A stretch of DNA of 49,130 nt. Source: Clostridiales bacterium (GTDB taxonomy: Bacteria; Bacillota; Clostridia; Oscillospirales; Butyricicoccaceae). The translations under genes were made by a program, and so were the position numbers. How positions within the stretch are numbered: position 1 is the stretch's first letter; every line of letters starts with the position of its first letter. Below are positions 1 through 17,074 of this stretch, piece by piece. Location: positions 1 to 49,130 of the forward strand of contig JALFIV010000076.1 of NCBI GenBank assembly GCA_022775385.1. The letters are read 5' to 3'. Under the pieces are notes generated by a model. That model searched no databases and was not told the DNA's origin. It worked only from the letters and a program-made list of their open reading frames with translations.

Positions 1-187
1 TTTTGAGTCAGAGATTATCATGAAGCTCTCTGATGAAGACGCACAAGGCTTTCTGGATGTAGCTGAGCCTATCTATCAGGCAGTGTTAAGTAATTCTATC
101 GAGAATTTGCGGCTTGCTGCGCTAAGAGATTCCTTGCTGCCCAAGCTGATGTCTGGTGAGATTGATGTCTCTGACATCCAGCTCTAA
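1..187 (+). CDS. hsdS: Type I restriction-modification specificity subunit HsdS, C-terminal fragment
   Basis: This is the 3' end of a gene that begins left of the window, read in the frame starting at base 2 and ending with TAA at 185-187. It encodes about 61 residues. The tail, with an ENLRLAALRDSLLPKLMSG stretch, is the distal conserved region typical of HsdS subunits, which choose the DNA target of a type I enzyme. It is convergent with the hsdS half-gene on the other strand and the two stop codons overlap. The facing arrangement suggests a second specificity cassette that could be exchanged by inversion; that is inference because the rest of the gene is not visible. Confidence 0.8.
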   Translation, partial: FESEIIMKLSDEDAQGFLDVAEPIYQAVLSNSIENLRLAALRDSLLPKLMSGEIDVSDIQL

Positions 188-744
188 GCCGCTAAATTAT
201 CGTTTATCTTCTTGTTGATAAGCGTTTTGTGGTCTATGCTTTCAAGCATCAGCACAATCTCTTCTTGCTCAGAAAAAGACTCTGGATAGCAAATTTTGAT
301 CTCGTCAAGCAATCTTTCTCTGTTTAACTCGGTTTGTCCGGTAGAGCCTTCATCTAACTGTAAAACTTCCCGTTGATGGGCTTTGAGGGCATATCCGAGA
401 TACCGTTGCATAACCTTTTCGTTTGCACGGAGAATAATCATGTGACCATCAACGGTTGTATCGCAAGGGACGGCCCCAATCTGCGCGATGCGCCCGGCTG
501 TTCCTGCTCCGGTTGAGTTAATGAGAATGTCATCTCTTTTAACATATCGTTCAGCAGGAACTCTCTTTTTTGCTGTGTCATGTAGCCTTGACTCAGAATA
601 ACTTATCTGATAATTTCTATTGCACTTTTGATTGAGGACTCTAATGGTTGTATCTGTTTCATCATCAGCATACGAAGGAGCAATGCCTTTAGAAATATAT
701 CCCACTAAATCTCGAAGAGGAACTTCATGCCATTTAGATGTCAT
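184..744 (-). CDS. hsdS: Half-length type I specificity subunit HsdS (one target-recognition domain)
   Basis: The 186-residue product has one target-recognition domain followed by the first conserved helical region (SEQEEIV..LESIDHKTLINKKINDNL). It stops there, where a full HsdS of about 400 residues would enter its second recognition domain. Translation is probably coupled to hsdM, because the ATG lies inside the last codons of hsdM (11-base overlap) and no strong ribosome binding site is seen. The truncation point falls exactly where it meets the 3' end of another hsdS on the plus strand. Half-size HsdS proteins can work as dimers, so it may be functional. It could equally be the expressed end of an invertible cassette. 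Confidence 0.85.
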   Translation of the reverse strand: MTSKWHEVPLRDLVGYISKGIAPSYADDETDTTIRVLNQKCNRNYQISYSESRLHDTAKKRVPAERYVKRDDILINSTGAGTAGRIAQIGAVPCDTTVDGHMIILRANEKVMQRYLGYALKAHQREVLQLDEGSTGQTELNRERLLDEIKICYPESFSEQEEIVLMLESIDHKTLINKKINDNLAA

Positions 745-2239
745 ACCCTATCGCCCCCAGTTTCTCTTTGATCTCAGCCTCTAGCTCGTGAGACTTTGCA
801 AATAGTTCAGACAGTTCCGATGTTAAACGGGTCATCTTTTTATCAAACGGTTCGCCATCATCTTCCTGCTCCTCGATACCAACATACCGACCCGGCGTGA
901 GAATGTAGTCCTGCTTGGCGATTTCTTCGGTATCTACCACAGCGCAGAAGCCCTTCTGATCCTCCAGCGTACCATCGCAATACGCTTTGTATGTGTCTGC
1001 AATCTTTGCAATGTCTGTATCGGTCAGCTCACGCAGCTTACGACTCACCATTGTTCCCAGTTTCCGCGCGTCAATAAACAAAGTCTTACCCGGCTGCTTT
1101 TTCTGTTTGTTGAGGAACCATAACGAAACCGGAATCTGGGTGGTGTAAAACAACTGTGTAGGCATTGCAACAATACATTCCACTAGGTCTGCATTGATGA
1201 TATTCTTTCTAATCTCACCCTCTCCGCCAGATTGGGAGGAAAGAGAACCATTGGCAAGTACCATACCAATCTTTCCAGCAGGAGCAAGATGATAAATCAT
1301 GTGCTGAAGCCATGCGAAATTGGCATTTCCCGCCGGAGGCATACCATACTGCCAACGAACATCATCTTTTAATCTATCTGCACCCCAGTCCGAGAGATTA
1401 AACGGTGGGTTCGCCATAATATAATCCGCGCGCATAGTCGGATGCTGATCCTCTAAAAATGTATCCGCCGCATATGCGCCAAGAGCCGGTTCAATTCCGC
1501 GAATCGCCAGATTCATTTGCGCCATCTTCCAAGTAGTCGGATTGGAATCCTGTCCATAGATGGAAATGTTACTGATGTTTCCGCTATGGTTCTCTACAAA
1601 TCTTGCAGACTGTACAAACATACCACCACTGCCGCAGCAGGGATCATATACACGTCCCTTAAATGGCTGCAAAACTTCTACCAAAGTTCTGACAACACAA
1701 GACGGAGTAAAAAACTCACCGCCACGCTTGCCTTCCTGCTCCGCAAACATAGACAAACAGTATTCATAGGTGCGTCCAAGGATATCTTTTTCACTTCCGT
1801 GTTCAATCATCTGAATATTGGTAAACAAATCTACCACTTCACCCAGTCGGCGCTTATCCAATTCGGGACGCGCAAAATTCTTCGGGAGAATATCCTTCAG
1901 ACGTTTATTCTCCTTTTCAATTGCCCTCATGGCATCATCAATGACAGTACCAATTTCCGGAGTATGTGCCTTGGCTGCAATGATGTTCCAGCGCGCTTCT
2001 GGTGGCACAAAAAAGATACCTTCCGAAATATATTCATCAACATCTTCCTCAAATCCGTCGCCTTCTTCTATCAATTCTTGGTATTTTTCTTCGAAACGAT
2101 CAGAAATATATTTCAGAAAAATCAGTCCAAGGACAACGTTTTTATATTCAGAGGCATCCATATTGCCGCGTAACACGCACGCCGCATCCCATATCTGCTT
2201 TTCAAAGCCAATATTAGCTGTAGATTTCGCTTTTGCCAT
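734..2239 (-). CDS. hsdM: Type I restriction-modification DNA methyltransferase HsdM
   Basis: This 501-residue N6-adenine methyltransferase is the modification subunit of a type I enzyme and works with HsdS. An N-terminal helical HsdM domain covers roughly residues 10-150. The S-adenosylmethionine-binding motif DPCCGSGGMF is at 199-208 and the catalytic NPPF motif at 277-280. Length is normal for the family. The start is ATG at 2237-2239 behind an AGGAG site. It is the first gene of hsdM-hsdS. No hsdR is present in the window; the next gene upstream is a serine recombinase, so hsdR must lie left of the window or be missing. Confidence 0.96.
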   Translation of the reverse strand: MAKAKSTANIGFEKQIWDAACVLRGNMDASEYKNVVLGLIFLKYISDRFEEKYQELIEEGDGFEEDVDEYISEGIFFVPPEARWNIIAAKAHTPEIGTVIDDAMRAIEKENKRLKDILPKNFARPELDKRRLGEVVDLFTNIQMIEHGSEKDILGRTYEYCLSMFAEQEGKRGGEFFTPSCVVRTLVEVLQPFKGRVYDPCCGSGGMFVQSARFVENHSGNISNISIYGQDSNPTTWKMAQMNLAIRGIEPALGAYAADTFLEDQHPTMRADYIMANPPFNLSDWGADRLKDDVRWQYGMPPAGNANFAWLQHMIYHLAPAGKIGMVLANGSLSSQSGGEGEIRKNIINADLVECIVAMPTQLFYTTQIPVSLWFLNKQKKQPGKTLFIDARKLGTMVSRKLRELTDTDIAKIADTYKAYCDGTLEDQKGFCAVVDTEEIAKQDYILTPGRYVGIEEQEDDGEPFDKKMTRLTSELSELFAKSHELEAEIKEKLGAIGYDI

Positions 2240-2274
2240 GACTTAATCTCCTATTATTCAAAAAATGCAATGTT

Positions 2275-2303
2275 TATTAAAGTATTTTGTTGAAACAAGT
2301 CAA
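2275..2303 (-). promoter_or_regulatory. Putative hsdM promoter
   Basis: On the minus strand TTGACT (2298-2303) and TTAATA (2275-2280) are separated by exactly 17 bases, about 35 bases upstream of the hsdM start. The rest of the gap from 2240 to 2554 is AT-rich and shows no credible gene. Confidence 0.5.
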
Positions 2304-2554
2304 AAAAAGTATATCATTTCCTCCTGTGTTTTGTAAATAGTAGTACAATACTTATAATGGTATTTTCATTTAGAAATCATATTTGATCATTTCCAACAAA
2401 AATGCTTTTAAAACATTCTAACGCTGAGATACATCAACATTCAAATAGATAGATAAGATTTATCTCATAATCATGTAATCTATCCCCCCCTGTCACTGAT
2501 TTCTCCCGCAAAAAGGGAACAGCATACGCCATTCCCTCATCCTTTTCTGTGATG

Positions 2555-3193
2555 TCATTCTTCGTATTGATGTACCAATTTGTAAAAAGAATTCTTCTTT
2601 AATTTCAGTTCTTCCATTGCTTTCACTGCAGTTATCGTTCCCGCCTTCCATGTTGTATAAACTTCCTTCCAATTTTCTGGATAGTTTACGCACGGTCTTC
2701 CAACTACACGTCCCGTTCTTTTACTTTTGCGCTTTCCTGTTTTTTCATCAATCGGCATAACTGCAACACCTTCAGCTTGTCGTTTTCTGATTGTCTCACG
2801 TTCGTTCTGTGCAATGGATGATAAGACTTCCACCAAAATATTATTTAACATATCAAGCACCCATTCTTGCCCTTCCGGTATCTCCATCATTGTTGTGGGC
2901 ACATCCAATATTTTGACGCGAACGCCGCTGTCTGTAAAATACTTTAATTCTCTCTTTGCATCCTCTTTGTTGCGGCTTAGTCTGTCAATACTCTTAATGT
3001 ACAATGTATCGCCCTTAACCAACTTACCAATGCCAACTTTGAGTGATTGATAACCGGCACGGTTTAAATCCTTTCCACTTGATTTATCCGTGACTATCAT
3101 ATCATCAGAAACATATTCTCTCAGTGCTGCTATCTGTCTGTCTAAGTTCTGTTCACGGGTACTCACTCGCGCATAACCTACTGTTTTACTCAT
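2555..3193 (-). CDS. Serine recombinase (resolvase/invertase family)
   Basis: The 212-residue protein is a small serine recombinase. The catalytic serine is in YARVS (residues 7-11), with the family motifs SIDRLSRN and ERETIRKRQAEG further on and a short C-terminal helix-turn-helix for site binding. The start was placed at ATG 3193 because a GAGGAGG site lies 8 bases upstream; the open frame continues 44 codons further but without such a signal. Proteins of this size resolve transposon cointegrates or invert DNA segments. Its place next to hsdM and a split hsdS makes inversion of specificity cassettes an attractive role, but plain resolution of the mobile element is as likely. Confidence 0.93.
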   Translation of the reverse strand: MSKTVGYARVSTREQNLDRQIAALREYVSDDMIVTDKSSGKDLNRAGYQSLKVGIGKLVKGDTLYIKSIDRLSRNKEDAKRELKYFTDSGVRVKILDVPTTMMEIPEGQEWVLDMLNNILVEVLSSIAQNERETIRKRQAEGVAVMPIDEKTGKRKSKRTGRVVGRPCVNYPENWKEVYTTWKAGTITAVKAMEELKLKKNSFYKLVHQYEE

Positions 3194-3440
3194 TGTGTGT
3201 CCTCCTCTCGCTATGTGTTTGTAAACCCTGTTTGTATCTGCAAACGTCTGTTTATTGTCCAAACAGTATTTTTCAAACACTTTTTCAAACTCAATCTTAC
3301 TGTTTGTAATTCTAATCTTTTTCAAACAGATAACTATACTAAGAATTGATGCCGATTGATTAGCTCGTCCTATTTACAATTTTACACTAAAAATAGTGTA
3401 TTTTCAAGCATCAAATCAAATAATTTGAAAAACGCAAAGA

Positions 3441-3503
3441 GTCAGCAAATGATATGCACCCCGAAAGTTAGACACTATCAGAGGTGCATAGCAAATTGCT
3501 GAC
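3441..3503. repeat. Imperfect inverted repeat with an IS3-end-like core
   Basis: About 20-base arms (3441-3460 and 3483-3503, starting GTCAGCAA and ending TTGCTGAC) face each other across a 22-base loop that contains CCCGAAAGTTAGAC. That core resembles terminal sequences of IS3-family elements, but no transposase is present. It sits between the recombinase gene and a small regulator gene. It may be an insertion-sequence scar, a recombination site or a terminator. Confidence 0.4.
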
Positions 3504-3542
3504 TCCATTCGACATATTGTTCAGTTGGTGCTTTTTCTTAAT

Positions 3543-3806
3543 CTAATCAGATTCTTTTATATGTTCTATAATATCTCCAATGTCACAATTCAATACGTTA
3601 CACACAAAATCATACGCCTCAAGCGAAACGATTTCTCCCCTGCGTAGTTTTTGCACAGTCGCTTCGCCAAGCTTTCCTTCTTTTCGAATGCGGCCGGTAT
3701 TCCATCCACAACTCTTTAGCTTTTTCAATATCACAGACTCTCCTGCAAACTCTGGCTTGTACTTCCAACAAGCATTCAGTGCCTTTCTGCTTTTCCGCTC
3801 CGACAT
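3543..3806 (-). CDS. Small Cro/CI-type transcriptional regulator
   Basis: The 87-residue protein has one helix-turn-helix domain of the XRE type, recognisable from the GKLGEATVQKLRRGEIVSLE region followed by a short oligomerisation tail (NVLNCDIGDIIE). The start was set at ATG 3806 because an AAAGGTGG site lies 8 bases upstream. A well-formed promoter with flanking inverted repeats lies just before it, which suggests autoregulation. No lysogeny or mobilisation genes adjoin it, so its target other than itself is unknown. Confidence 0.85.
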   Translation of the reverse strand: MSERKSRKALNACWKYKPEFAGESVILKKLKSCGWNTGRIRKEGKLGEATVQKLRRGEIVSLEAYDFVCNVLNCDIGDIIEHIKESD

Positions 3807-3823
3807 ATCAAAAGCCACCTTTC

Positions 3824-3878
3824 TTATTCGGCAATTATATCTTATTCTTAGCACTATTTCAAGTGTAAATCCGAATAA
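3824..3878 (-). promoter_or_regulatory. Promoter and dyad operator of the small XRE gene
   Basis: Minus-strand TTGAAA (3857-3862) and TATAAT (3834-3839) are 17 bases apart. Inverted copies TTATTCGG (3824-3831) and CCGAATAA (3871-3878) bracket the promoter, and a smaller CACT-N6-AGTG dyad overlaps the -35 box. This fits repression by the regulator encoded downstream. Confidence 0.6.
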
Positions 3879-3889
3879 TCCTTTTCTAG

Positions 3890-4380
3890 TTGCTGTGTAA
3901 TGCTAACGGTATTGACTCTGAAATCGAAGCATGTTTTAAAGCTACAATGGACTTTTTAAAACAAGTGTTTCATATCCAGAGGTGTATATGCTGGAAAATG
4001 GCATCGATTATCAACCAAAACGGAACTGGTAACAGCAAACGGAACGGTTTAAAAATGAGAATCGTGATAACCATAATCAGCAGAGCACGTGCCGACTCAG
4101 GTTTAAGGTACATACGAATAAAATCGAGTAAGCCTTTTAACGGTACGGACTCCCAACGACTACCCAACCTCTAAGCCATTCCGACCTTACAGGAATGACT
4201 TATAATGTATAGTCTAAATGTGATACGAGTTTGCTGTCTCGATAAAACAGTAGTTTTAGATGTATTCCGCTTATTCAGGAAGCGGATACGGAGACGCCGG
4301 AAGGTTTTTGCATTGAGCCTGTCCTGAATAGGTGTGATCCGAAAACAAAAATGCTTTATTCTGAACAATATGAGTTTTAA
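3890..4380 (+). pseudogene. 3' remnant of an intron-containing gene (two exon pieces)
   Basis: The reading frame from 3890 to 3924 (LCNANGIDSE...) can be joined across the group I intron to an open frame from 4251 to a TAA at 4378-4380. The second piece encodes 42 residues ending KTKMLYSEQYEF and is followed by a terminator. The join preserves phase: AT from exon 1 plus one base from exon 2. Upstream the frame hits a stop at 3887 next to the regulator's promoter, so the 5' part of the gene has been lost. I do not recognise the protein family. The protein-like composition of the second piece and its terminator argue that it once was coding. Confidence 0.5.
3925..4250 (+). ncRNA. Group I intron (self-splicing ribozyme)
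   Basis: The conserved core can be folded by eye. P1 is TGAAAT (3919-3924) with guide GTTTCA (3967-3972), giving a U-G pair at the splice site. P3 is AGAGGT (3978-3983) with ACCTCT (4167-4172). P4 is TGCTG (3989-3993) with CAGCA (4078-4082). P6 pairs CGTGCCG with CGGTACG. P7 is GACTA (4158-4162) with TAGTC (4210-4214). P8 is CATTCC (4177-4182) with GGAATG (4192-4197). The order P3-P4-P6-P7-P3'-P8-P7' is exactly that of group I introns. The 3' end is proposed at G4250, chosen for reading phase; G4253 is an alternative. No homing endonuclease is inside. Confidence 0.8.
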
Positions 4381-4397
4381 TAAACCAGAATATCTGA

Positions 4398-4427
4398 AAA
4401 CCGGAGGTATTCAATTACCTCCGGTTT
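4398..4427. terminator. Bidirectional terminator
   Basis: A perfect 12-bp stem, AAACCGGAGGTA (4398-4409) with TACCTCCGGTTT (4416-4427), has a 6-base loop. It lies between the end of the intron-split remnant on the plus strand and the end of the zinc-ribbon gene on the minus strand, so it can serve both. Its U-tract is short. Confidence 0.65.
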
Positions 4428-4463
4428 GACTTTATTCATATGTTTGTTGGAATCACAAAGTTC

Positions 4464-4748
4464 TCACCATTTATTCCCACAGTGTTTGCACTCCCACTGT
4501 GAACGAGCTGTTTTGCTGAATATACCAAATGCCGCACCATGCATCACTCTCTTCCCTGCTCCGATCTTCTGAATTTCAGGAGAACGACATACAGGACAAC
4601 GAGGAATATTTGGGTCTACTGGTTTTGGTTGTTGAGGATGTTCTTTCCAGTATTCTTGAGCAAATTTCACCATCTCTTCCCATTCTTCGTCTGATTTTTT
4701 ATGTTGATCTGCATTCCATCCATTCATAAAAGATTTAATTATTCCCAT
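4464..4748 (-). CDS. Small zinc-ribbon protein
   Basis: The 94-residue protein has an acidic helical N-terminal half and a C-terminal zinc ribbon made of CPVC (about residues 61-64) and CKHC (about 87-90), enclosing a glycine-rich turn. Similar small zinc-ribbon proteins are common in Firmicutes chromosomes and phages and have no assigned function. It has its own ATG with an AAGGAG site 7 bases upstream. It is a lone minus-strand gene placed between two plus-strand phage-gene remnants, which shows how mosaic this segment is. Confidence 0.8.
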   Translation of the reverse strand: MGIIKSFMNGWNADQHKKSDEEWEEMVKFAQEYWKEHPQQPKPVDPNIPRCPVCRSPEIQKIGAGKRVMHGAAFGIFSKTARSQWECKHCGNKW

Positions 4749-4789
4749 AGTGATTCTCCTTCCTATATATTATATAAATTATATCACAT

Positions 4790-7700
4790 TTGAAGCTAAA
4801 AAATCTAGGAGAAGCTATTGAACTATATGAAAATTTTGATAATACAGCGGAATCCCTGAATAGACTCAAAGACGCTTATGAGAAGCTTGGCAAAACCGGA
4901 AAAAGAGCATTTCATAATGCTACTGGAAAATCTGCAGCAGATATGCAGAAAATGTTTGAAAGCTCAGAAAATTCTGCAAATACTGCCGCCGCAGATGCCA
5001 ATGCTACTGCAAACGAGAATCTTGCCGCATCTGAACAAGCCGTCGCATCCGGAGCAAACGCAAGCGCAAGCGCATTGGCAAACGACACTGCCGCAAAACA
5101 AGCCAATGCAGCCGCAAGCAGAGAAGCTGCTGCCGCGAATGAAACTTACCAAGCTTCTCAACGTTCTGCCGCAAGAACAAATGCTGCAACCTCTGTTTCT
5201 TCTGCACAGAATGTAGCAAATAACGCACTATCTCAAAATCAAAACACTCATATGCTTGCCCAATCTGTTCCACAAGTTGATCCAAACAATTTCTTGCAGA
5301 ACAACAGATTAGGTAAGACAATTGATAATGTTTCAAGTGCTGCGCTAGGTGCAAGCGCATTGAAGCGATTAGGTAAGAGCGTAGATGATGTCGATGATAA
5401 GACAAGGAAAGCATCACAATCTGCAAATAGTTTACGAAAAGCTATTGTAGATGGTTCTGATGCAGCAAAAACCGGTTCAAGTACATTTGATGATTTTGCT
5501 TCTACTGCTGATAAAGTAGTTACAAATGCAGACTTGTTAGATGATATGATCGAAGATGTAAGCAAGTCTAATACAAAAAAAGCAGCCAAAAATACTAGTT
5601 CATTGACCAGTGCTTTGATCGGACTTGGTACAGTAATAAAATCTATTCCGGTTGGCGCGATTGCATTGTTTGGTGCTTCTATTGCTGGTGCTTTTGCATT
5701 ACGAAATTACCAACAGAATATGTTCAGCAATGCAGTAGAGAGTGCTTCTGAATCTGCATCTGCATATCAAAATACAGCGGATGAGCTTTCAAATGTAAAC
5801 GATCAGCTTTCTACTCAAAAGCAACGCATCAAAGAGATTAGACAACTACAGAAATCCGGAAAAGCAACTTTTGAAGACAATGTTGAACTAGAACAATTAC
5901 AGGCTTCTAATGAAGAATTAAAGCGCAAGCAAATTCTAACAGAGTCTTATCAAAAAGAACAAGCAAAAACAGCAGCTTCTGACGCATATAAAGCTCTCAA
6001 TGCCCCATTGACTCAATCGTTAACAAAAAAGAACAACCCATCTGTGATTGTATCTGGCGCAGGAGCTTATGTTGACCATGGACAATATACAAGTGTATTA
6101 AATGCAACTAGAACAGACATGCAGACGCTGCGCGATTTACAAGACCAGCGTGATCAGTTATATCAAGATCTTGATAAAACCAAAGGTCTCAATCTGCCTT
6201 GGAGCACAGATAAGACACGAAAAGATATTGAAGATATCGAATCTCAAATTTCAGATTATAATTCTACAATTGCTGATAATATTGCTGCCATTCAAGACCA
6301 AGCAAATACACTATCTGCTATAGACCCAAAGTATATCACCGCTGAACAAAAAGCGTCTCTCAGAGAAGCTAATGATATTTTAGCGGAATACACATATGGA
6401 CAAGAACAGTCATACGCAAAAAGTTCTGCGTTGATGAACGGATTATTCAATCAAGTCACAGGGTCAGATACCGGAATCAAAGATTTTATTTTAGATGAGA
6501 TTATAGATAGTGGAAAATCTGCTACTGATGTAATCAAATCTTTAGGTATTGAATTGAGTGATCTTGGAGATATTTCCCCTACTCATTTTAATCAGTATTT
6601 TAATCAGTTGGCAAAGAATGCAGATAAAGCATCTAAATCAATCAACTACATTGATGGTTCAATGGAAGGCGTTACCGCCTCTCTTGAAACTGCAAATGAT
6701 GGTGCTACTCTTGATACATTCTCAGAAGCACTAACTAACGCAGAAAGTCTTTATAAGAAAGGGCTAGTTGGAACTGACGATTTTCGTACCGTAGCAAAAC
6801 TAATCAACTCAGGAAATGACGGAAGTAACCGACGTGAAGCTTATACAAAGAATTTTGAAACAAATCTTAAAAAGCTAAAAGAATACATTTCTGTTGATGA
6901 AGAAACCGGAGATGTTAAGAAATCTGGTATTTCTAAATTTGTAGATGATTTGGCTGCAAGCGCGAAAAGCCAAGGAAAAGGCTTTAAGAACACGGCACAA
7001 GCAGCAAAAGCTTTAGGAATTCCAACTGAAGTATTTGAAATGTTGGTTGGTAAGGCTTCCGAGTTCGGTATGTACAAGTACGGAGATTATTCATTTAAAA
7101 AGATGGATAAATCTGCTCAATCTCTTTCAGACGCAAAATCTCAGCTAGAAGAGATGAAAGCCCTCCGCGACAGTATGGATTCCGGAGAAGATAGACAAGC
7201 GTTATCTGACAAAATCAAAGCTTATTCTAAAGAAATTAAGGCTGGAAATAAGGATCTTACTAAGTTTGATACGAATCTTTCAGATAAAATGCAGAAAGAT
7301 TTAGACCTCGTAAATAAAAAGCAAGCATTCAAAGATGCGAATCGGTTTGCTTCTGACTCTGGAGAAGCGACAGATGAAGCGAATGCTCTTGCTTCCGGAA
7401 GAGATTACTTAGATACTCTGAAAGAACGCCTTGGATTAAATAAAAAAAATGCAAAGATGAGCGACAAGCTTGCGCAAGCAGACCAAAAGGTTGCAGATGC
7501 AGAAAAGGCACTGAAAAATGCAGATACAACTGAAGAGAAAGCAAATGCAAGAAAATCCCTATTAAAGTCAATAGAAGACGAATTATCTTTGTTAGAAGAT
7601 CTTCAGAAACAGCAAGATAAAGAAGACAAGCAGAACAAAAAAAATAAAAAAAATAAAAACAAAAATAAGAATTCTGACGACAGTGAATCAGGAGGAAAAT

Positions 7701-9013
7701 CGAAACGTTCTTCCAAGAAGAATAAGAATTCTGTCGATAATTCAGTAAACCGCGAAGGAATTGTTGATAATCCTGTATCAATTAAAAGTGTGGAGGATGG
7801 AGCTGCGGCAATTTCTACACTTAAAGAAAAATTGGCTACACTTGATGACTCAACGCAATCATACGAAGTACGTGTTCAAGCAAATGCTGATATCGATAAT
7901 CTAACTCAAGAATTAGCAAATCTTGATCCGGAGATTAAGGCATCTCTTGGAATTGACCCAAATTGGACAGCCGAAGAGATTGAAGCATATTTCAACGGAA
8001 ACGAGATTGGTATTCCTGGAAGTCTTGAAGTAAATCCGCAATCAATCGATTCAACCGAAGAACAGCTTCAAGCTAACCCACTAGCTTTAAAAACTGAGAT
8101 CAATTCAGATGGAGTAGATTGGGATGGAGAAGAATATTTAGGAAATGCATCTATTGAAGATTTGTCATTTTTAGTAGAAGCTGATGCCGATGATGCTGTT
8201 CAAACAGTTCAGGATGTAAAGAATAGTCTGGAAGATATCCCAACAGAAAAAGATACAGAGTTAAATGCAGATGGAAACATGGGAGATATGGCGCTGGAAG
8301 TCATATCTTCCCTCACTGGAATTCCAACAGAAGTATTGACGATGCTTTCTGCAAGTGGAAATGCTTCTTCTGTAGTTGCTGCTGTTCTTGCTCAAATTCT
8401 TGGAATTCCTGCAACTAAAATGACTCAGATCTTAGCTTCTGGAAATGCTGGTCAAATTGCTGCGGCTGCATTTACCGCTCTCGGATTAATTCCATCTTCT
8501 AAAAACGTTAATATTACCGCTTCTGGAAATGCTGAATCTAATGCACAGAATGCTGAAGATGCAGTTCAAAATGTTGCAACTTCTCACAATACTGTATTAT
8601 CTGCTTCAGGAAACGCGATTTCTCAGGCGAGAGCTGCGGCTGCCGCTATATATGCTATTCCACGTAGCAGGTCAAGCGTTATTACTGTAACAAGACATAA
8701 TATAACCATTAATGAGACAAAATCAAAGTCAGTTAATGGAACAGCCCATTATTTTGGAACAGCTCATAGCTTTGGTACTGCGTTTGCAGATGGAAGTATT
8801 ACAAAGCGAAACTTCTTAAATAAATCAAATTCTATTGGTTCAAAAATATCAAGAGATATTAATAAACAGTTTGGAATATCAGATCAAGATAATAAACGAA
8901 AGAATTCCGGCGCAGCAAAAGCAAGTGGAGACTGGAGTGTTAAGAAAGATCAGACTTCTCTCATAAATGAAGTCGGTCGTAATTATTTTGCGACACTATA
9001 TGGAAACATGTAG
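4790..9013 (+). CDS. Phage tail tape-measure protein, 5'-truncated and intron-interrupted
   Basis: This very long open frame encodes about 1,400 residues typical of a siphophage tape measure: an Ala/Ser-rich coiled-coil start, a hydrophobic segment near residues 280-300, long helical stretches, a Lys/Asn-rich linker near 950, and several SASGNA-type repeats near residues 1190-1290. The real start is missing: the frame opens at 4778 after a stop, the first possible codon is a TTG at 4790 with no ribosome binding site, and the first in-frame ATG is over 50 codons in. The end is artificial too, since the TAG at 9011-9013 lies inside a group I intron and the last exon base is probably 8999. No other tail, head or lysis gene is near. 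Confidence 0.85.
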   Translation: MKLKNLGEAIELYENFDNTAESLNRLKDAYEKLGKTGKRAFHNATGKSAADMQKMFESSENSANTAAADANATANENLAASEQAVASGANASASALANDTAAKQANAAASREAAAANETYQASQRSAARTNAATSVSSAQNVANNALSQNQNTHMLAQSVPQVDPNNFLQNNRLGKTIDNVSSAALGASALKRLGKSVDDVDDKTRKASQSANSLRKAIVDGSDAAKTGSSTFDDFASTADKVVTNADLLDDMIEDVSKSNTKKAAKNTSSLTSALIGLGTVIKSIPVGAIALFGASIAGAFALRNYQQNMFSNAVESASESASAYQNTADELSNVNDQLSTQKQRIKEIRQLQKSGKATFEDNVELEQLQASNEELKRKQILTESYQKEQAKTAASDAYKALNAPLTQSLTKKNNPSVIVSGAGAYVDHGQYTSVLNATRTDMQTLRDLQDQRDQLYQDLDKTKGLNLPWSTDKTRKDIEDIESQISDYNSTIADNIAAIQDQANTLSAIDPKYITAEQKASLREANDILAEYTYGQEQSYAKSSALMNGLFNQVTGSDTGIKDFILDEIIDSGKSATDVIKSLGIELSDLGDISPTHFNQYFNQLAKNADKASKSINYIDGSMEGVTASLETANDGATLDTFSEALTNAESLYKKGLVGTDDFRTVAKLINSGNDGSNRREAYTKNFETNLKKLKEYISVDEETGDVKKSGISKFVDDLAASAKSQGKGFKNTAQAAKALGIPTEVFEMLVGKASEFGMYKYGDYSFKKMDKSAQSLSDAKSQLEEMKALRDSMDSGEDRQALSDKIKAYSKEIKAGNKDLTKFDTNLSDKMQKDLDLVNKKQAFKDANRFASDSGEATDEANALASGRDYLDTLKERLGLNKKNAKMSDKLAQADQKVADAEKALKNADTTEEKANARKSLLKSIEDELSLLEDLQKQQDKEDKQNKKNKKNKNKNKNSDDSESGGKSKRSSKKNKNSVDNSVNREGIVDNPVSIKSVEDGAAAISTLKEKLATLDDSTQSYEVRVQANADIDNLTQELANLDPEIKASLGIDPNWTAEEIEAYFNGNEIGIPGSLEVNPQSIDSTEEQLQANPLALKTEINSDGVDWDGEEYLGNASIEDLSFLVEADADDAVQTVQDVKNSLEDIPTEKDTELNADGNMGDMALEVISSLTGIPTEVLTMLSASGNASSVVAAVLAQILGIPATKMTQILASGNAGQIAAAAFTALGLIPSSKNVNITASGNAESNAQNAEDAVQNVATSHNTVLSASGNAISQARAAAAAIYAIPRSRSSVITVTRHNITINETKSKSVNGTAHYFGTAHSFGTAFADGSITKRNFLNKSNSIGSKISRDINKQFGISDQDNKRKNSGAAKASGDWSVKKDQTSLINEVGRNYFATLYGNM

Positions 9014-9283
9014 TTAAAATTTATCTAATTGCTGGAAACCCCTAAAGCTATTCAAACCACAACGCAAGGATGAAATAAGCCTAAACGTGACGGTAGCGAA
9101 AGCAGAAAAAATTGAATAGATGTCACAAGGTTAAATCCTAAATGTATTGCACGTAGTCTACAGACTTACGTGCTTTTTAATGAGCAATCAGCAGCCAAGC
9201 CGCGAATAGCGGAAGGTTCAACGACCATCCCGTATCGGGAGTAGGCCGCAAGCGTTTGGCGGTCGAAATGGTAGACATGTAAG
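9000..9283 (+). ncRNA. Group I intron in the tape-measure gene
   Basis: P1 is a near-perfect hairpin: exon ACTAT (8995-8999) pairs with guide GTAGT (9010-9014) with a U-G wobble at the splice site, closed by ATG-GAAA-CAT. P4 is TGCTG (9030-9034) with CAGCA (9189-9193). P5 includes CTATTCAA (9048-9055) with TTGAATAG (9112-9119). P6 is CCGC with GCGG (9200-9212). P7 is ACCAT (9224-9228) with ATGGT (9268-9272). The stretches AATCAGCAGCCAAG and GGTTCAACGAC are hallmark phage group I core sequences. P3 was not resolved by eye, and P9 seems very short or absent. The 3' end at G9283 was chosen because it gives an open, in-phase exon. Confidence 0.85.
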
Positions 9284-9324
9284 TTGAATTATTAACGAAA
9301 GAAAATGAGATGTGTTATATTTAA
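9284..9324 (+). other. Possible 3' exon of the tape-measure gene
   Basis: Joining T8999 to base 9284 gives an open frame of 13 residues (FELLTKENEMCYI) ending at TAA 9322-9324. Phase is kept, but such a short match can arise by chance, and it does not look like a normal tape-measure C-terminus. The natural downstream exon may simply have been lost. The stretch 9325-9541 is AT-rich and shows no gene. Confidence 0.3.
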
Positions 9325-9541
9325 TTCATTACTGTTTCTACAATTGCTTTTTTTATAATTTCCCCCATATTTACAACTTTTTCAGTCTTTGCTTTTCGAG
9401 TTCCCCACAAAACATGTCATTTTTTTATTTAATCCAAACATGTTTTTCCAGAAAGCAGGACAAAGTATTTAGAATTCGTTTTTTATGCTTTCAATAGCAA
9501 TACAAATCGATGAAAATCATAATAAAATCACAGTTTTATCA

Positions 9542-10201
9542 TCAAAACAAATCCTTAAATGCAGAACTTCCGCTTGCAAAGCATTCCTCGTTCAGTGTGT
9601 CAATATCATTGCTAAATAAGTAATGGTCTGCTGCATCTTCTGACAAAGGAATAAGTATTCTGTACGCTCCCTGCTGGCTTTTCGTTTTTTTATTCCAGCT
9701 TTTACGCTGACCCTCTTTTGCTTGCTTCTCGATAAAACGATATTCCTTTAATGTATTGATGTGTTCGTACAGACTGGAACTCGAACAGTGTAACCAATTT
9801 GCCAAACCACTGATAGAGATATTGAAATTTCCGTCCTTATCTCCCGCCGCTTTCGCATAACAAAGGATTGCAAGCGCAATACGGCGTGTCTTTTTTTTAT
9901 TAAATCGTAGAATGATTTGACGCAATTCTGCATCCGATATACCTAGTATCGGTTTCTCTCGCAGTGGGGTTTTATCCTGTTGTGCTTTATAGATGATTTG
10001 ATTCACATTGATTTCATCTGTATTTAAGTAGAGTTTATTCTTTGCTGCCCATCCAAAAATCTTTTTACGGGTATCAAGTTCGTTTAATCCCTCTACCCGC
10101 AAATAGTATTTTGCAAGCAGATAACAGTGTCCATAGATACAGTTTTTGTTGATACCGACACCATCCAGTAAATCTAATACAACTAATCGTTCATCAATCA
10201 T
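9542..10201 (-). CDS. Winged-helix domain protein of unknown function
   Basis: The 219-residue protein has an N-terminal region that may bind DNA or partner proteins and a winged-helix-like segment at about residues 125-165 (ISISGLANWL..SSSSLYEHINTLKEYRFIEKQ). The pattern resembles plasmid and phage replication initiators or their accessory proteins, but no specific family is recognised. Its ATG overlaps the stop of the upstream gene as ATGA, so the two are translationally coupled. It is the last gene of a minus-strand run of element genes. Confidence 0.65.
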   Translation of the reverse strand: MIDERLVVLDLLDGVGINKNCIYGHCYLLAKYYLRVEGLNELDTRKKIFGWAAKNKLYLNTDEINVNQIIYKAQQDKTPLREKPILGISDAELRQIILRFNKKKTRRIALAILCYAKAAGDKDGNFNISISGLANWLHCSSSSLYEHINTLKEYRFIEKQAKEGQRKSWNKKTKSQQGAYRILIPLSEDAADHYLFSNDIDTLNEECFASGSSAFKDLF

Positions 10202-10836
10202 GTTTCATTTTCCTTTCTTTTTGCGTCATCTTGTGCCTGTTTCCAATCATCTGCATTGTAGTAGAATGTTTCTTTCAGCCACCCTCGCGCGATTATATAC
10301 CGTATCGGAACGAGCAGTGCGGTGCATTTGTTTCCATCTTCGTTTCTGTACTGATACCGTTTGCATCGTTTGTCATCTAAAGCTAGTTCAGATTTCATCT
10401 TATAGAAATCAATAAAATAGATAGGCTTGCTTTTCTGGCGGGAGTTTGCCGGTGTTGCGTCTACAACTGCAAGGTTTGTGTAATCGTAGTGATACCAGCC
10501 TTGCGCTGTTCCGCTGCCGCGCTGAATCTCCAACTCAACAAATACGTTTCCTGTTTTCCCAATTATCGTATCTTTTTTGATCTCTACATAGAATGAATCA
10601 TTTGCCAGTTCATCATGTACAAGCAAATCTCCTTTGTGCTGGTCTTCAAGTCCTGTCAACTCGGCTGTGTATGCGTATGCGGTCAAACAATTCCTAACGA
10701 GATATTCTGCTGGTTTTGCATTCTCATATTGTTGTTTAAAAGTATTGTCCCACATCGAGAGTAAACGCAAGACTTTCCTTGCGCCCTCCCGAAAGATATT
10801 GTACAAACATTGTCTTATCCTCCTGTAAACCGTCAT
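10198..10836 (-). CDS. Possible PD-(D/E)XK-type nuclease, uncharacterised
   Basis: The 212-residue protein contains GDLLVHDELANDSFYVEIKKD, spacing an Asp and an ExK in a way seen in PD-(D/E)XK nucleases such as resolvases and restriction enzymes. The remainder has alternating hydrophobic strands that fit that fold. No specific family is recognised, so the nuclease assignment is inference from one motif. The start was set at ATG 10836 with an AAAGGAA site 6 bases upstream. Its stop overlaps the start of the winged-helix gene. Confidence 0.5.
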   Translation of the reverse strand: MTVYRRIRQCLYNIFREGARKVLRLLSMWDNTFKQQYENAKPAEYLVRNCLTAYAYTAELTGLEDQHKGDLLVHDELANDSFYVEIKKDTIIGKTGNVFVELEIQRGSGTAQGWYHYDYTNLAVVDATPANSRQKSKPIYFIDFYKMKSELALDDKRCKRYQYRNEDGNKCTALLVPIRYIIARGWLKETFYYNADDWKQAQDDAKRKENET

Positions 10837-10909
10837 TATTGATTCCTTTCGTATTAAATTTGAATAAAAGAAAAGACGCACAATAAAGCGCGTCCGTAAA
10901 AACATGTAT

Positions 10910-11050
10910 TCAATTCTCTGTTGTTTCCAGTAAATCCAACTCATACTTGAGCACCGCCATATCTGCAATCACCTCCAACAACACTTTGTCTAGCCGCTCG
11001 TATTCCGCTTGTAACCGGTCTAGTTGAATTCTTTTTGCTGAATTAGTCAA
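10910..11050 (-). CDS. Small helical protein, 46 residues
   Basis: A short open frame on the minus strand encodes an almost entirely helical, heptad-like peptide (RLQAEYERLDKVLLEVIADM, then LKYELDLLE). It probably starts at TTG 11050, 8 bases after GGAG; a GTG nine bases further up is an alternative. It lies between the ParB-like gene and the possible nuclease gene on the same strand. The coiled-coil character suggests a small partner protein or regulator. Function unknown. Confidence 0.5.
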   Translation of the reverse strand: MTNSAKRIQLDRLQAEYERLDKVLLEVIADMAVLKYELDLLETTEN

Positions 11051-11115
11051 GTTAAACACTCCATTCAAAAGTAACTGTGAGAGCGTTTTTTGCGCCTATA
11101 TAAATACATAAGAAA

Positions 11116-11143
11116 AGACACGCCAGCCGAAACTAGCGTGTCT
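11116..11143 (-). terminator. Terminator of the ParB-like gene
   Basis: The stem AGACACGC / GCGTGTCT lies a few bases past the stop of the ParB-like gene on the minus strand and is followed by a T-rich stretch. A T-run also follows on the plus strand. Confidence 0.65.
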
Positions 11144-11148
11144 ATTTT

Positions 11149-12318
11149 TCATGATTCAATCATTCCTTCATCATTAAAATACTTAATCAAATTTACTCCC
11201 CATGCTACGAGCTGACGCACTGACTTTACATAGGCGTCTTTCTCGTTTTGAGGCAGTAAATCAATATGATCGGGGATATACGCATATCCGCCAACATCAA
11301 CTAAAAATCCGCTAACTTTCGAACAAAACAGAACTGCATCGCGTTCTAGCTTCTGATTAAAGTCTTTAATTCCTTCCTGTTCTTCATACAAAGAAATCCT
11401 TTTAAGTGATTCTGCGTAATCATCAAAGAGCTTTCGATACTCGTTATGTTGTGATTGAAGCTTTTTTTCGTAGTTTTCAACTTTTGCTTTTAAGGTGTCG
11501 TAATCATCCGGAATAACAGTTCTTTTCTCTACACGAACTTCCTGATTATCAAGCTGCTTATGCAAATCTTCGTTTTCGTCATGTGCATTTGCAAGTTCCT
11601 GATCTTTTACATTAAGCTGTTGCTTGAGGTCTCGAATCTGTTCAATGTATTCTGCAATTTGCTTCTGTGTAAACTTTTCAGCAGCAGGAAGCATTTGAAC
11701 AAGCTGTTCCTGTTCTTCCGGAGATAGTCGCGCAATCAGACGAGAAGCGGTAGACGCGGAGATATTTCCAGCTTCTACAAGGTCTTTGATTTCTTGGGGC
11801 AGAGATTCAAGCTTCTTAGCTTGACGGTATGACTCCATATTGTCAATGCCCATCATCTTGGCGAGTTCTTCTTGAGTGTGTGGGATGTCCGAATCAAACC
11901 CAACAATGTTGGGTTTGATTTCTGCGCTCTTACGATCTCCACCATGTTGAATCCCATATAGTTCTTCCAGCTTCTTAATCCGTCTGCCTATCTTAATTTC
12001 ATCATCACCAATCGTGCCGCGCTGACGGATGTTGGTTTCAATAAGATCCTGTACAACTTCATCTTCATTGTCGTAAATTCGAACTTCAGCAATGACAGAT
12101 TCAATACCAAGCTCCTTGCACGCTCGTACTCTTTGATGTCCTGAAACAATGACCTTATCCTGTGTGATTACAATCGGTTCAATAATTCCGCTCTGTCCGC
12201 GTTCCATACGAACAGTAATAGAACTCAGGAACTTTTTCCACTTCTGACCTTCCATATCGTCAAAGTAGTAATCATTCATCGGATGAGGTTTCAGTTCTGA
12301 AACCAAAATTTCTTGCAA
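11149..12318 (-). CDS. ParB/Srx-domain protein with coiled coil
   Basis: The 389-residue protein begins with a ParB/sulfiredoxin-type nuclease-like domain (about residues 1-110) carrying GHQRVRA near residue 60 and ETNIRQRG near 93. A helix-turn-helix region (about 150-210) and a long coiled coil (about 220-320) follow. Such proteins bind DNA and are frequent on integrative elements, plasmids and phages of gut Firmicutes. A role in partition, replication control or regulation fits, but no ParA gene is present. The start is TTG at 12316-12318 with a GGAGG site 7 bases upstream. A perfect dyad lies about 30 bases further up and may be its operator. Confidence 0.85.
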   Translation of the reverse strand: MQEILVSELKPHPMNDYYFDDMEGQKWKKFLSSITVRMERGQSGIIEPIVITQDKVIVSGHQRVRACKELGIESVIAEVRIYDNEDEVVQDLIETNIRQRGTIGDDEIKIGRRIKKLEELYGIQHGGDRKSAEIKPNIVGFDSDIPHTQEELAKMMGIDNMESYRQAKKLESLPQEIKDLVEAGNISASTASRLIARLSPEEQEQLVQMLPAAEKFTQKQIAEYIEQIRDLKQQLNVKDQELANAHDENEDLHKQLDNQEVRVEKRTVIPDDYDTLKAKVENYEKKLQSQHNEYRKLFDDYAESLKRISLYEEQEGIKDFNQKLERDAVLFCSKVSGFLVDVGGYAYIPDHIDLLPQNEKDAYVKSVRQLVAWGVNLIKYFNDEGMIES

Positions 12319-12349
12319 TTAAATTCCTCCATTATTCTGATAATATTTG

Positions 12350-12368
12350 CCGTACAATATCTGTACGG
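12350..12368. promoter_or_regulatory. Dyad upstream of the ParB-like gene
   Basis: A perfect 7-5-7 palindrome, CCGTACA-N5-TGTACGG, lies 32 bases before the ParB-like start codon. Position and symmetry fit an operator for a dimeric repressor, possibly the ParB-like protein itself. Confidence 0.5.
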
Positions 12369-12369
12369 T

Positions 12370-12850
12370 CTGCGTGTTATTTGTGTTCATCTATCTTCTC
12401 TTAAACTTCTCTGCCGCAGGGGGGCTTACTGGCAAAGCTAAAAATTATGAGTATATGTTCGTTGATTATGAGAATGCGGATTGTGCCGATAATATACCGC
12501 TCCCGCCAGAACCAAAACAAAAAGTTTATTTTAAAATTTCCCGTACACATAACTCTGAGAAGAACAGAGTAACCGTTACAACCTCAAAAAGAAATCAAAA
12601 AAATCTTTGAAATCTTCCTGTACATGTAAATCTCAGCTATCTATGCTGCCGATACAAGAAACTGAAATCCATTATAAATAAATCTTTATAAATGAAAATC
12701 ACAGCTATCAATTTTTACCTTTACTAGAAACCCAATTCAACATCTAGAAGATGAAATAGAAATTGGATTGATAGCAACAGTTACCTTTACAACCAAGATG
12801 GGGATATACATCACAGTTACAAGTTACCGCTTACGCGGTTTTTATTTTTG
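12370..12850 (+). other. Structured gap, candidate large non-coding RNA
   Basis: This gap holds no convincing gene but many local inverted repeats. Examples are ACTCTG/CAGAGT (about 12552-12570), GTAAC/GTTAC, CAGC/GCTG (about 12635-12649) and CCAATT...AATTGG (about 12732-12768) with CATCT/AGATG inside. It ends in a clear plus-strand terminator at 12826-12850. CAGCTAT and CAGTTAC motifs recur at about 12635, 12702, 12777 and 12814. A plus-strand structured RNA is the simplest reading; a replication or transfer origin is the alternative. No good plus-strand promoter was found. The remaining stretch to 13062 has further hairpins (12928-12960, 12984-13008, 13030-13058). Confidence 0.4.
12826..12850 (+). 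terminator. Plus-strand terminator
   Basis: ACCGC-TTAC-GCGGT is followed directly by TTTTATTTTT. No plus-strand gene precedes it, so it points to a non-coding transcript. Confidence 0.7.
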
Positions 12851-13062
12851 TATTTTTTGATTGTGTGATATACATCTATCCGTCTGAGGTGCAGATGAAC
12901 TGTCCCATTTACTTTTTTATGTGTACGGTATTCCATTTCAGGTAACGGAAATGGATACCGAACACGAATTCTCAACCCACAATCATCAATCTTTCGCAAG
13001 AAAGTTGATATAAACCTTGGGTCAAATTTGGCGTATTACTATATTATAGTATCTCGCCGTTT

Positions 13063-14592
13063 TTAACCCAACTTTCGCAGTTTCCACGCCTGTTGATGAC
13101 GCACCCCTAAATTGTCGTAGTAGTCTACCACATCAATTACAAAAGGAGTTGGCAATTGCTGCAAATATTGATTTATTGCCTTTCGGCTTTTCTTCGGTTT
13201 TCCATTTCGACGGACATTAACAAGTTCTATCAGTGATTTTCTATCTGTCTTATCTGGAATTAAATCAAATCCGTCTGAATTCAATCTGCTTTTTAGTTTT
13301 TCAACCAAAAAGAATTCTTCAAAATTCAAAATAATGTCCGCACTGACCGCTGGACGCAAACAGTACAGCACTCCATCCGCATAACTTCTATCCTGCATGT
13401 ACTTGATGCGATTAATTAAAGAAGTGGCGTAATGATGCCGATGTTTGTTCACGATCCAGTCAAACTGATTCCTATTAGCTGTTGGAACAAGAATCCCTCC
13501 AGCAGTATACTCAGCGCGTCCATGCGATGCGATAAATCCATACCTGTCTTGCTGATATTCTCTAACCTCTTCAACATTTCGCGTTAAAGCTCGTTTTTTT
13601 CCATTCAACGTACTGCCACTATAGGAGTAGATGAACAACTCTGCTTTATCATTTGCATCGTTCATTCGTTTGCGTCCTGCGCACTGAGTTACGCTTATCG
13701 GGTCAAACACTTTGATGATAATTCTTTTTAGCTGAACATCTCTTAGTGTGACTCCAACTTCCATTTTAGTTGTAGTTATTAGAATGAGACTGTCAAAACG
13801 CTTCGTGCGTTGAGTTTTTAATTCTGCATTGAGATTTCGATACTTATTAAATTCAGTTGCAGATGTAACAAATTGCGCACACTCTTGATATTTTTTGTAT
13901 AATTCAAACGCTTCTGTTGCTTTTTGGATGAATACGATTGTTTTGATATGATTCTCAACTGAATCCTGTAGCAGTTTATCAATGGTTTCATCCTCGTTAA
14001 AGAATGCAATTTGGTTCGCAGTTCGATATGTAGTATCAAATAGGTATTCCTTGCAATTGATTGAATCATGATTCAAATATGAAACAACATCATGCGGCGT
14101 AGCGGATAGTAAAACTTTTTGCACACCTGCTGTTTCATGCATGATTGCATTATATGAATATTCTGTTTTTTTGTTAAAAATCGAATCTTGAATCCAGTAA
14201 TGGAATTCATCACAAACAATACAAGCATACTGTTTGAGTTGTGCAATCATCGTATCATGTGAACGCGATTCCTCGAACTCGTTTTCAATGTGTTGATATG
14301 ATGTCGTGTCAAGATTACCAACATCGTATTTCCATCGTTCATGATTTGTTTCCTGCCGAATCGGTATGCGTGGGAAAACCATCAACACTTTCTGATTTCG
14401 CTGCGCGTAGTAAGAACATACCGTGTGCAGCACCCAATATGTTTTGCCTATTCCCATTCCACCGTGAATTAAAACAGCTTCATCCGGCTTCCATGTGTTG
14501 ATAACTTCATGCGTCAGCACATCAGTGACACGTTGTGCGTGTGTGCAGTCGATTACTGTACGGAGATTCGTAATAATGATGAATTCCTCCAA
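13063..14592 (-). CDS. Superfamily 2 DEAD/DEAH-like helicase
   Basis: The 509-residue protein has the core motifs of an SF2 helicase: Walker A GGMGIGKT (44-51), DEFH (128-131), SATP (163-166) and motif VI QCAGRKRM (303-310), then a C-terminal region without a recognised domain. It probably unwinds DNA for replication or maintenance of the element. The start is uncertain. The open frame begins with a TTG that overlaps the GGAGG site itself, while an ATC/ATT run lies 5-11 bases after that site, where a start codon is expected. A strong promoter lies about 130 bases upstream with a hairpin-bearing leader between. Confidence 0.88.
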   Translation of the reverse strand: MEEFIIITNLRTVIDCTHAQRVTDVLTHEVINTWKPDEAVLIHGGMGIGKTYWVLHTVCSYYAQRNQKVLMVFPRIPIRQETNHERWKYDVGNLDTTSYQHIENEFEESRSHDTMIAQLKQYACIVCDEFHYWIQDSIFNKKTEYSYNAIMHETAGVQKVLLSATPHDVVSYLNHDSINCKEYLFDTTYRTANQIAFFNEDETIDKLLQDSVENHIKTIVFIQKATEAFELYKKYQECAQFVTSATEFNKYRNLNAELKTQRTKRFDSLILITTTKMEVGVTLRDVQLKRIIIKVFDPISVTQCAGRKRMNDANDKAELFIYSYSGSTLNGKKRALTRNVEEVREYQQDRYGFIASHGRAEYTAGGILVPTANRNQFDWIVNKHRHHYATSLINRIKYMQDRSYADGVLYCLRPAVSADIILNFEEFFLVEKLKSRLNSDGFDLIPDKTDRKSLIELVNVRRNGKPKKSRKAINQYLQQLPTPFVIDVVDYYDNLGVRHQQAWKLRKLG

Positions 14593-14605
14593 AATATAAA
14601 AATTA

Positions 14606-14750
14606 AAGGGATAATCCGCAGATCATCCCTTTTAGACTGACTATACAATAATGCTTCAAACTAACAAATGACCAGTCCGGTGACAGAGTCACCCGATGTC
14701 TACGATCTTGATTCTGACATTAGTATAAACCAATCTGCATGTCGTGTCAA
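14606..14750 (-). promoter_or_regulatory. Helicase promoter and structured leader
   Basis: Minus-strand TTGACA (14745-14750) and TATACT (14722-14727) are exactly 17 bases apart. The leader of about 120 bases contains a GGTGAC/GTCACC dyad near 14680-14696 and an AAAGGGAT/ATCCCTTT hairpin near 14607-14634, directly before the translation start. This arrangement could control transcription or translation. Confidence 0.65.
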
Positions 14751-14752
14751 CC

Positions 14753-14786
14753 CTTTTTGAATTGAAATTTTTTGCAATTCAAAAAG
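14753..14786. repeat. 12-bp perfect inverted repeat between repressor and helicase
   Basis: CTTTTTGAATTG (14753-14764) faces CAATTCAAAAAG (14775-14786). It lies just past the repressor gene's end and just before the helicase promoter. It could terminate the repressor transcript or be an operator. Confidence 0.55.
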
Positions 14787-14804
14787 AGTTGTTTCTGTTC
14801 CATG

Positions 14805-15371
14805 TCATAACGGAAGGTCGTAACCGTTCCGAAAACCGTCCTGCCATACTTGTAACATCTTTCTAACCTCGTCAACGTCGCTTTCCAACAATCCTTTTTC
14901 GACGATTTCTTTGATTAAATACTTTTGGAATTCTGGGCATGATAAGTCATTTAATACGTCAAGATATGCATTACGGTCATACCATGAAATTATATCTAGT
15001 AAATGAGACAACTTGATGTTGTCATCATCATAGGATAAGTTTTCTAGTTCAAGAAGGTAGTTGAATGCTTTGATACGATTGTTCTTATCGGTCGACGTAT
15101 CCCTGATTGCCTGAACGCCTCGAATTGCCGCTTCTGATAATCCGGTGTCCATATTAACTTGCCGGTATTCCGGATGTTTATAATCCACACGGCCCAGAAG
15201 ATAATCTAATGTTACATCGTGATAGTTCGCTATACGAATAAGGGTTTCGACGTTTGGTTCCTTACCGTTCTCCCATCCGTTGTAATTATTAGGCTTAACT
15301 CCTAATAGTTCAGCCATTTGGATTTGGGTACGATTTCCGCGTAATTCTCTCAATCTGTCTCTGAGCAACAT
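14805..15371 (-). CDS. Cro/CI-type repressor of the integration module
   Basis: The 188-residue protein has an N-terminal helix-turn-helix (about residues 1-65, with QIQMAELLGVKPNNYNGWEN) and a longer helical C-terminal domain likely used for dimerisation. There is no peptidase signature, so it is not a self-cleaving LexA-type repressor. The start was set at ATG 15371, 6 bases after GAGGTG, rather than at the GTG three codons upstream. It is divergent from the excisionase and integrase genes. Repeated half-sites fill the space between, so it probably represses integration and excision functions and itself. Confidence 0.88.
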   Translation of the reverse strand: MLLRDRLRELRGNRTQIQMAELLGVKPNNYNGWENGKEPNVETLIRIANYHDVTLDYLLGRVDYKHPEYRQVNMDTGLSEAAIRGVQAIRDTSTDKNNRIKAFNYLLELENLSYDDDNIKLSHLLDIISWYDRNAYLDVLNDLSCPEFQKYLIKEIVEKGLLESDVDEVRKMLQVWQDGFRNGYDLPL

Positions 15372-15401
15372 TTCCATCACCTCAACAGAATTGTATCACG
15401 C

Positions 15402-15506
15402 TTTTGGGGTTGTGTCAATTTTTTTAATTTCAGGGGTTGCGAAATCCTTTGTGATAGTGTATAATTCTTTTGGAGTTGCTAAACTATGTAACTCCAAAAG
15501 AATTAT
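15402..15506 (+). promoter_or_regulatory. Excisionase-integrase promoter with repeated operators
   Basis: TTGCGA (15437-15442) and TATAAT (15460-15465) are 17 bases apart and read toward the excisionase. Half-sites of the form GG(G/A)GTTG occur at about 15406, 15433 and 15471, with an inverted copy at 15490. A perfect 17-bp inverted repeat (15461-15477 and 15490-15506) overlaps the -10 box and the transcription start. This is the probable control switch of the element. Confidence 0.7.
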
Positions 15507-15548
15507 TCAAATTATACGAAGGGACTGTCTAAAATAAATCATCATACT

Positions 15549-15788
15549 TTGTTTTCAGAATATCCGGATATGCTCACAGTGGCACAGATGCAAAAGGCAC
15601 TGGGCATTGGTAAGAATACCGCATATAAACTCATCAACTCCGGTGCAATCAAGAGCTTTCGTCTAGAAGGTAAAAGCATTCGAGTTCCCAAGCCGTGGCT
15701 CATTGATTATGTCATGGCAAGCGGATATAATAATGACAACAAAGCAAGTCTTGTACCCGTAACAGAAGCAAAGGAGGCTACGTTATGA
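15549..15788 (+). CDS. xis: Excisionase-like helix-turn-helix protein
   Basis: The protein of about 79 residues has a MerR/excisionase-type winged helix (LTVAQMQKALGIGKNTAYKL, then FRLEGKSIRVPKPWL), as in the small DNA-binding proteins encoded just before tyrosine integrases. Such proteins bend the attachment site and steer the integrase toward excision. The start is TTG 15549 or ATG 15570; neither has a good ribosome binding site. Its stop overlaps the integrase start as ATGA, so the two are co-translated. Confidence 0.85.
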   Translation: MFSEYPDMLTVAQMQKALGIGKNTAYKLINSGAIKSFRLEGKSIRVPKPWLIDYVMASGYNNDNKASLVPVTEAKEATL

Positions 15789-17068: not shown

Positions 17069-17074
17069 CGCAAT

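What the first reader, a model, noticed from the sequence alone, without database searches (positions are those of the whole stretch)
8995..9324. Group I intron splitting a phage tape-measure gene
P1 with a U-G pair and a GAAA-capped extension, P4, P6 and P7 can all be drawn, and the core matches phage group I consensus stretches. The annotated stop of the tape-measure frame lies 12 bases inside the intron. An in-phase 3' exon of only 13 codons is possible at 9284-9324. Either the protein really ends this way or the true exon was lost and the intron is stranded.
Basis: partly seen in the sequence, partly recalled or inferred. Interest (0 to 1): 0.78.

Follow-up and report, generated by a model that had tools for sequence, protein, structure and literature searches.

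The report
Broken group I intron in phage tail-gene relic
A real self-splicing-type intron sits inside a leftover piece of a phage tail gene in this bacterium, but its 3' part and the rest of the gene are missing, so it is almost certainly a dead relic and a fairly ordinary case of prophage decay.

Summary
The intron is real but broken. Window 8981-9278 is a group I intron, IA-like: RF00028 hits at 45.8 bits (gathering score 50), E 4.8e-9 in 17 kb, and it is about 70-77% identical to introns in Clostridia and phages over 9027-9278. It interrupts a phage tape-measure protein (TMP) gene. P1 is 8976-8994 with U8980.G8990, so exon 1 ends ...SLINEVGR|, where uninterrupted homologues run on (E-x-x-V-R-x-G...) for hundreds of residues.

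Similarity stops at 9278, just after P3'. In 19 of 19 relatives with a compact P8, the 3' strand of P7 follows 69-119 nt after its 5' strand. The window has none, and no P8, P9 or recognisable 3' end. TMP exon 2 was not found in the window or the genome. The 13-codon exon at 9284-9324 resembles no homologue.

The TMP piece seems cut on its 5' side too. A second, group I-like intron (core about 3998-4214), shared with two other phage TMP genes, lies upstream, and the first TMP part is absent.

New member of a known kind. Low interest.

The parts
4790..8980 (+). Fragment of a phage tape-measure gene (inner exon; true start uncertain); predicted exon 1 of the intron ends with codon CGT 8978-8980
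   Evidence: The window ORF hits no PHROG or Pfam profile; its homologue in same-genus genome G011 hits phrog_4211 and phrog_2335, tape measure; alignment; a 64-aa query aligns exactly to 8918-8980
8976..8994 (+). P1 of the intron, with splice-site pair U8980.G8990; predicted 5' splice site after 8980
   Evidence: Fold; Rfam alignment; same P1-P2 order in L052
8995..9014 (+).
   Evidence: Fold; Rfam alignment
8981..9278 (+). 3'-truncated group I intron, IA-like, with P1 3' side, P2, P3, P4-P6 region, P7 5' strand, P7.1, P7.2 and P3'
   Evidence: RF00028 45.8 bits; blastn relatives; profile match ends at 9278
9020..9025 (+). P3 5' strand UUUAUC, pairs with GGUAGA 9270-9275; the relative L027 has UCCUUU with GGAGGA at the same places
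   Evidence: Read from the sequence and the Rfam alignment
9223..9228 (+). P7 5' strand GACCAU; its partner (AUGGUC) is missing downstream
   Evidence: L034 has GACCA with UGGUC
9229..9263 (+). P7.1 (9229-9239) and P7.2 (9245-9263), the extra hairpins typical of subgroup IA
   Evidence: Read from the sequence; matching hairpins in relatives
9276..9541 (.). Zone in which the break lies: end of intron homology to the stop codon of the DnaD-like ORF on the other strand
3998..4214 (+). Core of a second, group I-like intron upstream of the TMP fragment; its 5' part could not be aligned
   Evidence: Alignment with L026 and L064; no RF00028 hit
4464..4748 (-). Small ORF with zinc-ribbon-like CxxC motifs, antisense, between the upstream intron core and the TMP fragment; also next to the TMP in L026 and L060
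   Evidence: tblastn

Best explanation
The feature descends from a mobile group I intron (IA-like) that entered a phage tape-measure gene after the Arg codon 8978-8980, in the conserved motif E-(V/L)-G-x-E-x-x-V-R-x-G. Ancestrally it would have spliced in the usual way: a guanosine bound at P7 attacks after U8980, then the exons are joined. In this genome a later deletion or rearrangement, with an end between 9276 and 9541, removed P8, the 3' strand of P7, P9, the terminal G and the whole 3' exon. The intron is stranded and cannot splice, because the guanosine-binding site lacks one strand. Any transcript would be translated to the intronic stop at 9011-9013 as a truncated, probably useless TMP fragment. 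Shown by computation: the homology, P1/P2/P3, the end of homology and the uninterrupted homologues. Inferred: the ancestral splicing, the deletion event and the present inactivity.
For: RF00028 match and many blastn relatives. P1 and P2 are the best fold. The exon boundary coincides with the point where similarity to uninterrupted TMP homologues stops. In 19 of 19 relatives with a compact P8 the P7 3' strand follows within 69-119 nt; the window has none. A P8-P9 profile finds five held-out relatives but nothing at or after the window intron. TMP exon 2 is absent from the window and not found in the genome; the upstream TMP part is missing too.
Against: The join at about 9278 comes from a draft assembly and could be an assembly error. 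G000 is only about 92% complete, so absence of exon 2 is not proof. A large insertion in P8 is not strictly excluded, since L052 shows one.
Confidence: 0.85

Rival explanations
1. The join at about 9278 is a misassembly: in the real phage the intron is whole and working, and the draft assembly joined two prophage pieces of similar composition.
For: Draft genome of 142 contigs. No other genome or phage was found with the same junction or with the right-hand flank.
Against: TMP exon 2, TMP part 1 and a downstream tail protein are not found on any other contig of the genome, as would be expected if the phage were whole but wrongly joined; these searches used a diverged homologue as query.
Confidence: 0.1
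2. The intron is intact but has a large insertion in P8, and P8', P7' and P9 lie further downstream.
For: The homology ends at the start of P8, exactly as in L052, where an ORF fills P8.
Against: No P8-P7'-P9 match anywhere in the window. The only + strand AUGGUC up to 17 kb, at 9623, lies in the DnaD-like coding sequence of the other strand without P8 or P9 around it. No TMP exon downstream.
Confidence: 0.03
3. A split intron: the 3' half with TMP exon 2 is encoded elsewhere and the halves splice in trans.
For: The break falls in P8, a loop that tolerates insertions (L052), so two RNAs could in principle assemble.
Against: Only one RF00028 hit in the genome and no TMP exon 2. TMP part 1 is missing too, which points to decay.
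Confidence: 0.02

Closest known systems
Phage and prophage group I introns of the IA type (RF00028), e.g. in Enterocloster phage CB457P2, Clostridioides phage ES-S-0173-01, Staphylococcus phages and contig L052
   Same: Same core sequence, P1-P2-P3 order, P7.1 and P7.2; L052 also sits in a tape-measure gene
   Different: They keep P8, P7', P9 and a 3' exon; the window copy has lost all of these
Introns of the ICP1 tape-measure gene (PMC10448857)
   Same: Several introns in one phage tape-measure gene, shown there by RNA-seq and RT-PCR
   Different: ICP1 introns splice; here the gene is a fragment. Sequence relatedness to ICP1 introns was not tested separately
[quoted passage not shown] 2000; known here only from its title as cited in PMC8541194 and PMC3952083)
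   Same: A phage group I intron with deletions
   Different: Here one end of the catalytic core and the 3' exon are lost

Membership tests
Group I intron (RF00028) | Covariance-model match to the conserved core | tested here: inconclusive
   45.8 bits, E 4.8e-9 in 17 kb, but under the gathering score of 50; strongly supported by blastn relatives
Group I intron (RF00028) | P1 with a U.G pair at the 5' splice site | tested here: met
   U8980.G8990 in the 8976-8994 hairpin
Group I intron (RF00028) | Both strands of P7, the guanosine-binding site | tested here: not met
   5' strand GACCAU 9223-9228 present, 3' strand missing
Group I intron (RF00028) | P9 region, terminal G and a 3' exon that continues the gene | tested here: not met
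   No P8-P9 profile match; no TMP exon 2 in window or genome
Group I intron (RF00028) | Self-splicing with added guanosine | not testable with these tools
   Needs RNA in vitro
Group I intron subgroup IA | Extra hairpins P7.1 and P7.2 between P7 and P3' | tested here: met
   9229-9239 and 9245-9263, matching relatives
Phage tape-measure protein | Similarity to tape-measure profiles | tested here: inconclusive
   The window ORF itself has no profile hit; its homologue in G011 does (E 3.2e-10), as does L062

The most novel reading that the evidence does not exclude
A tape-measure gene dispersed into separately encoded pieces, its inner exon flanked by parts of two different group I introns, joined by splicing in trans, with the 3' half of this intron encoded on sequence missing from the draft genome.
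Probability: 0.02. Interest if true: 0.8.

Novelty: new member of a known kind. Interest (0 to 1): 0.2.

Why it matters
It corrects a misleading reading: the ORF end at 9013 is the product of a broken intron, not the natural C-terminus of a tail protein. It also shows that this tape-measure lineage carries at least two unrelated group I-like introns, one of which the standard Rfam model does not see. For general biology it is ordinary prophage decay.

Tried and rejected
(1) A P7 3' strand at 9623-9628 (AUGGUC, the only + strand copy between 9278 and 17 kb): rejected, because it lies in the coding sequence of the DnaD-like gene on the other strand, without P8 or P9 around it. (2) A large ORF in P8, as in L052, with the 3' half further on: no trace of P8-P7'-P9 in the window. 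(3) Exon 2 elsewhere in the genome: not found. (4) Inversion by the nearby serine recombinase (2555-3325): no inverted repeat with an arm at the break; the perfect 18-nt pair 7431-7448/9420-9437 is A+T-rich and not at the end of homology. (5) The same junction or the right-hand flank in other genomes or phages: nothing useful. (6) A minus-strand frame at about 9326-9418 as a clue to what was joined: no phage match. (7) P0001 as a query of genome contigs and viral contigs: no confirmed relatives.

Full report
What is in the sequence. An Rfam scan of the whole window at gathering scores lists only tRNAs, but a scan of 8800-9600 gives RF00028, group I intron, at 8971-9368 on the + strand with 45.8 bits, E 2.3e-10; in 17 kb the E-value is 4.8e-9. 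It falls just short of the gathering score of 50. The core is also found by plain blastn: 191 phage records (best E 1e-37, Enterocloster phages, 73% identity) and 11 genomes of the same class besides its own (best 1.9e-47, 77%). The longest matches cover about window 9027-9278. Group I ancestry is therefore secure. The intron occurs once in its own genome and was not found in 148 near relatives.

5' splice site. The stretch 8972-9016 folds into two adjacent hairpins, 8976-8994 and 8995-9014 (-16.5 kcal/mol, z -4.7). Both contain a U.G pair. Rfam aligns the first as P1 and the second as P2, and relatives show the same order P1-P2-P3; in L052 a P1 (GUGGU.UA...UAGCCAC) is followed directly by P2. 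With U8980 as the splice site, exon 1 ends with a whole codon...KKDQTSLINEVGR|. A 64-residue query from an uninterrupted homologue aligns to the window exactly up to 8980. The homologues read SLINELGPEIVVRDGKW (G011), ALTGEVGQEVVVRKGKF (L060, Lachnospiraceae) and ALVNEVGTESIVRDGQW (L062, MT835469.1) across this point. In them the residue after this point is Glu.

3' end. After the P3 3' strand (GGUAGA 9270-9275, pairing with UUUAUC 9020-9025) the window diverges from the relatives. In 19 of 19 relatives with a compact P8, the P7 3' strand (UAGUC, or UGGUC in L034, which has GACCA like the window, a compensatory change) follows 69-119 nt after the 5' strand; the window has none. The one further exception, L052, has an ORF in P8 and its P7 3' strand about 1.1 kb on. 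A profile of the P8-P7'-P9 part recovers five held-out relatives at E 1e-4 to 5e-15, but nothing at or after the window intron. Without P7 the ribozyme has no guanosine site, so splicing is not expected (general knowledge of group I introns).

The gene. The host ORF itself hits no PHROG or Pfam family. Its homologue in same-genus genome G011 (1890 aa) hits tape-measure profiles, and the ORF before it is a clear tape-measure N-terminal part (phrog_4211, 6e-74). After the intron site the G011 protein runs on for about 780 residues, and L060 and L062 for about 205 and about 1,330. None of this continuation was found downstream in the window or in the own genome.

The other side. The TMP fragment also lacks its first part. 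In G011 the TMP is split by about 0.9 kb that holds a conserved RNA-like core and an antisense ORF with zinc-ribbon-like motifs; the same core lies at window 3998-4214 and in phage contig L064, where it directly follows TMP part 1. It has a group I look (AAUCAGCAG; GACUA with UAGUC), but Rfam does not call it. Part 1 is not in the window or found in the genome. So the window keeps one inner exon with intron sequence on either side, next to a lysogeny and replication block mostly on the opposite strand (integrase, excisionase-like, repressor, helicase-like, ParB-like, DnaD-like). The simplest account is a degraded prophage.

Novelty and limits. Introns in phage tape-measure genes are known and shown to splice in ICP1 (PMC10448857). 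A truncated copy is a new member of a known kind. The join at about 9278 comes from a draft assembly of 142 contigs, and no reads were available to check it.

Noticed in passing
window 3998-4214 (+), L026 4230-4660, L064 about 9375-9670: A second conserved group I-like intron between two parts of the same tape-measure gene, not recognised by RF00028 at any threshold used. Three sequences only; whether it splices is untested.
   Followed up: partly
window 4252-4359 (+): Near-threshold match to drum RNA (RF02958, 41.7 bits, gathering 43, E 2.9e-6), just downstream of the second intron core.
   Followed up: no
window 4464-4748 (-), L060 2678-2830, L026 4713-4889: Small antisense ORF with zinc-ribbon-like motifs kept next to the tape-measure gene in three elements.
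   Followed up: partly
window 184-3325 (-): Type I restriction-modification genes (HsdM, partial HsdS) beside a serine recombinase, the arrangement of a phase-variable system; the contig starts within or near hsdS.
   Followed up: no
window 15785-17150: An integrase gene ends next to the 3' end of a tRNA-Ala gene, a likely attachment site; no second copy of the tRNA end was found in window 1-16900.
   Followed up: partly
L052 about 9900-11600: Tape-measure gene of a phage contig with a group I intron of the same family that carries a putative endonuclease ORF in P8, with P7' and P9 after it.
   Followed up: partly
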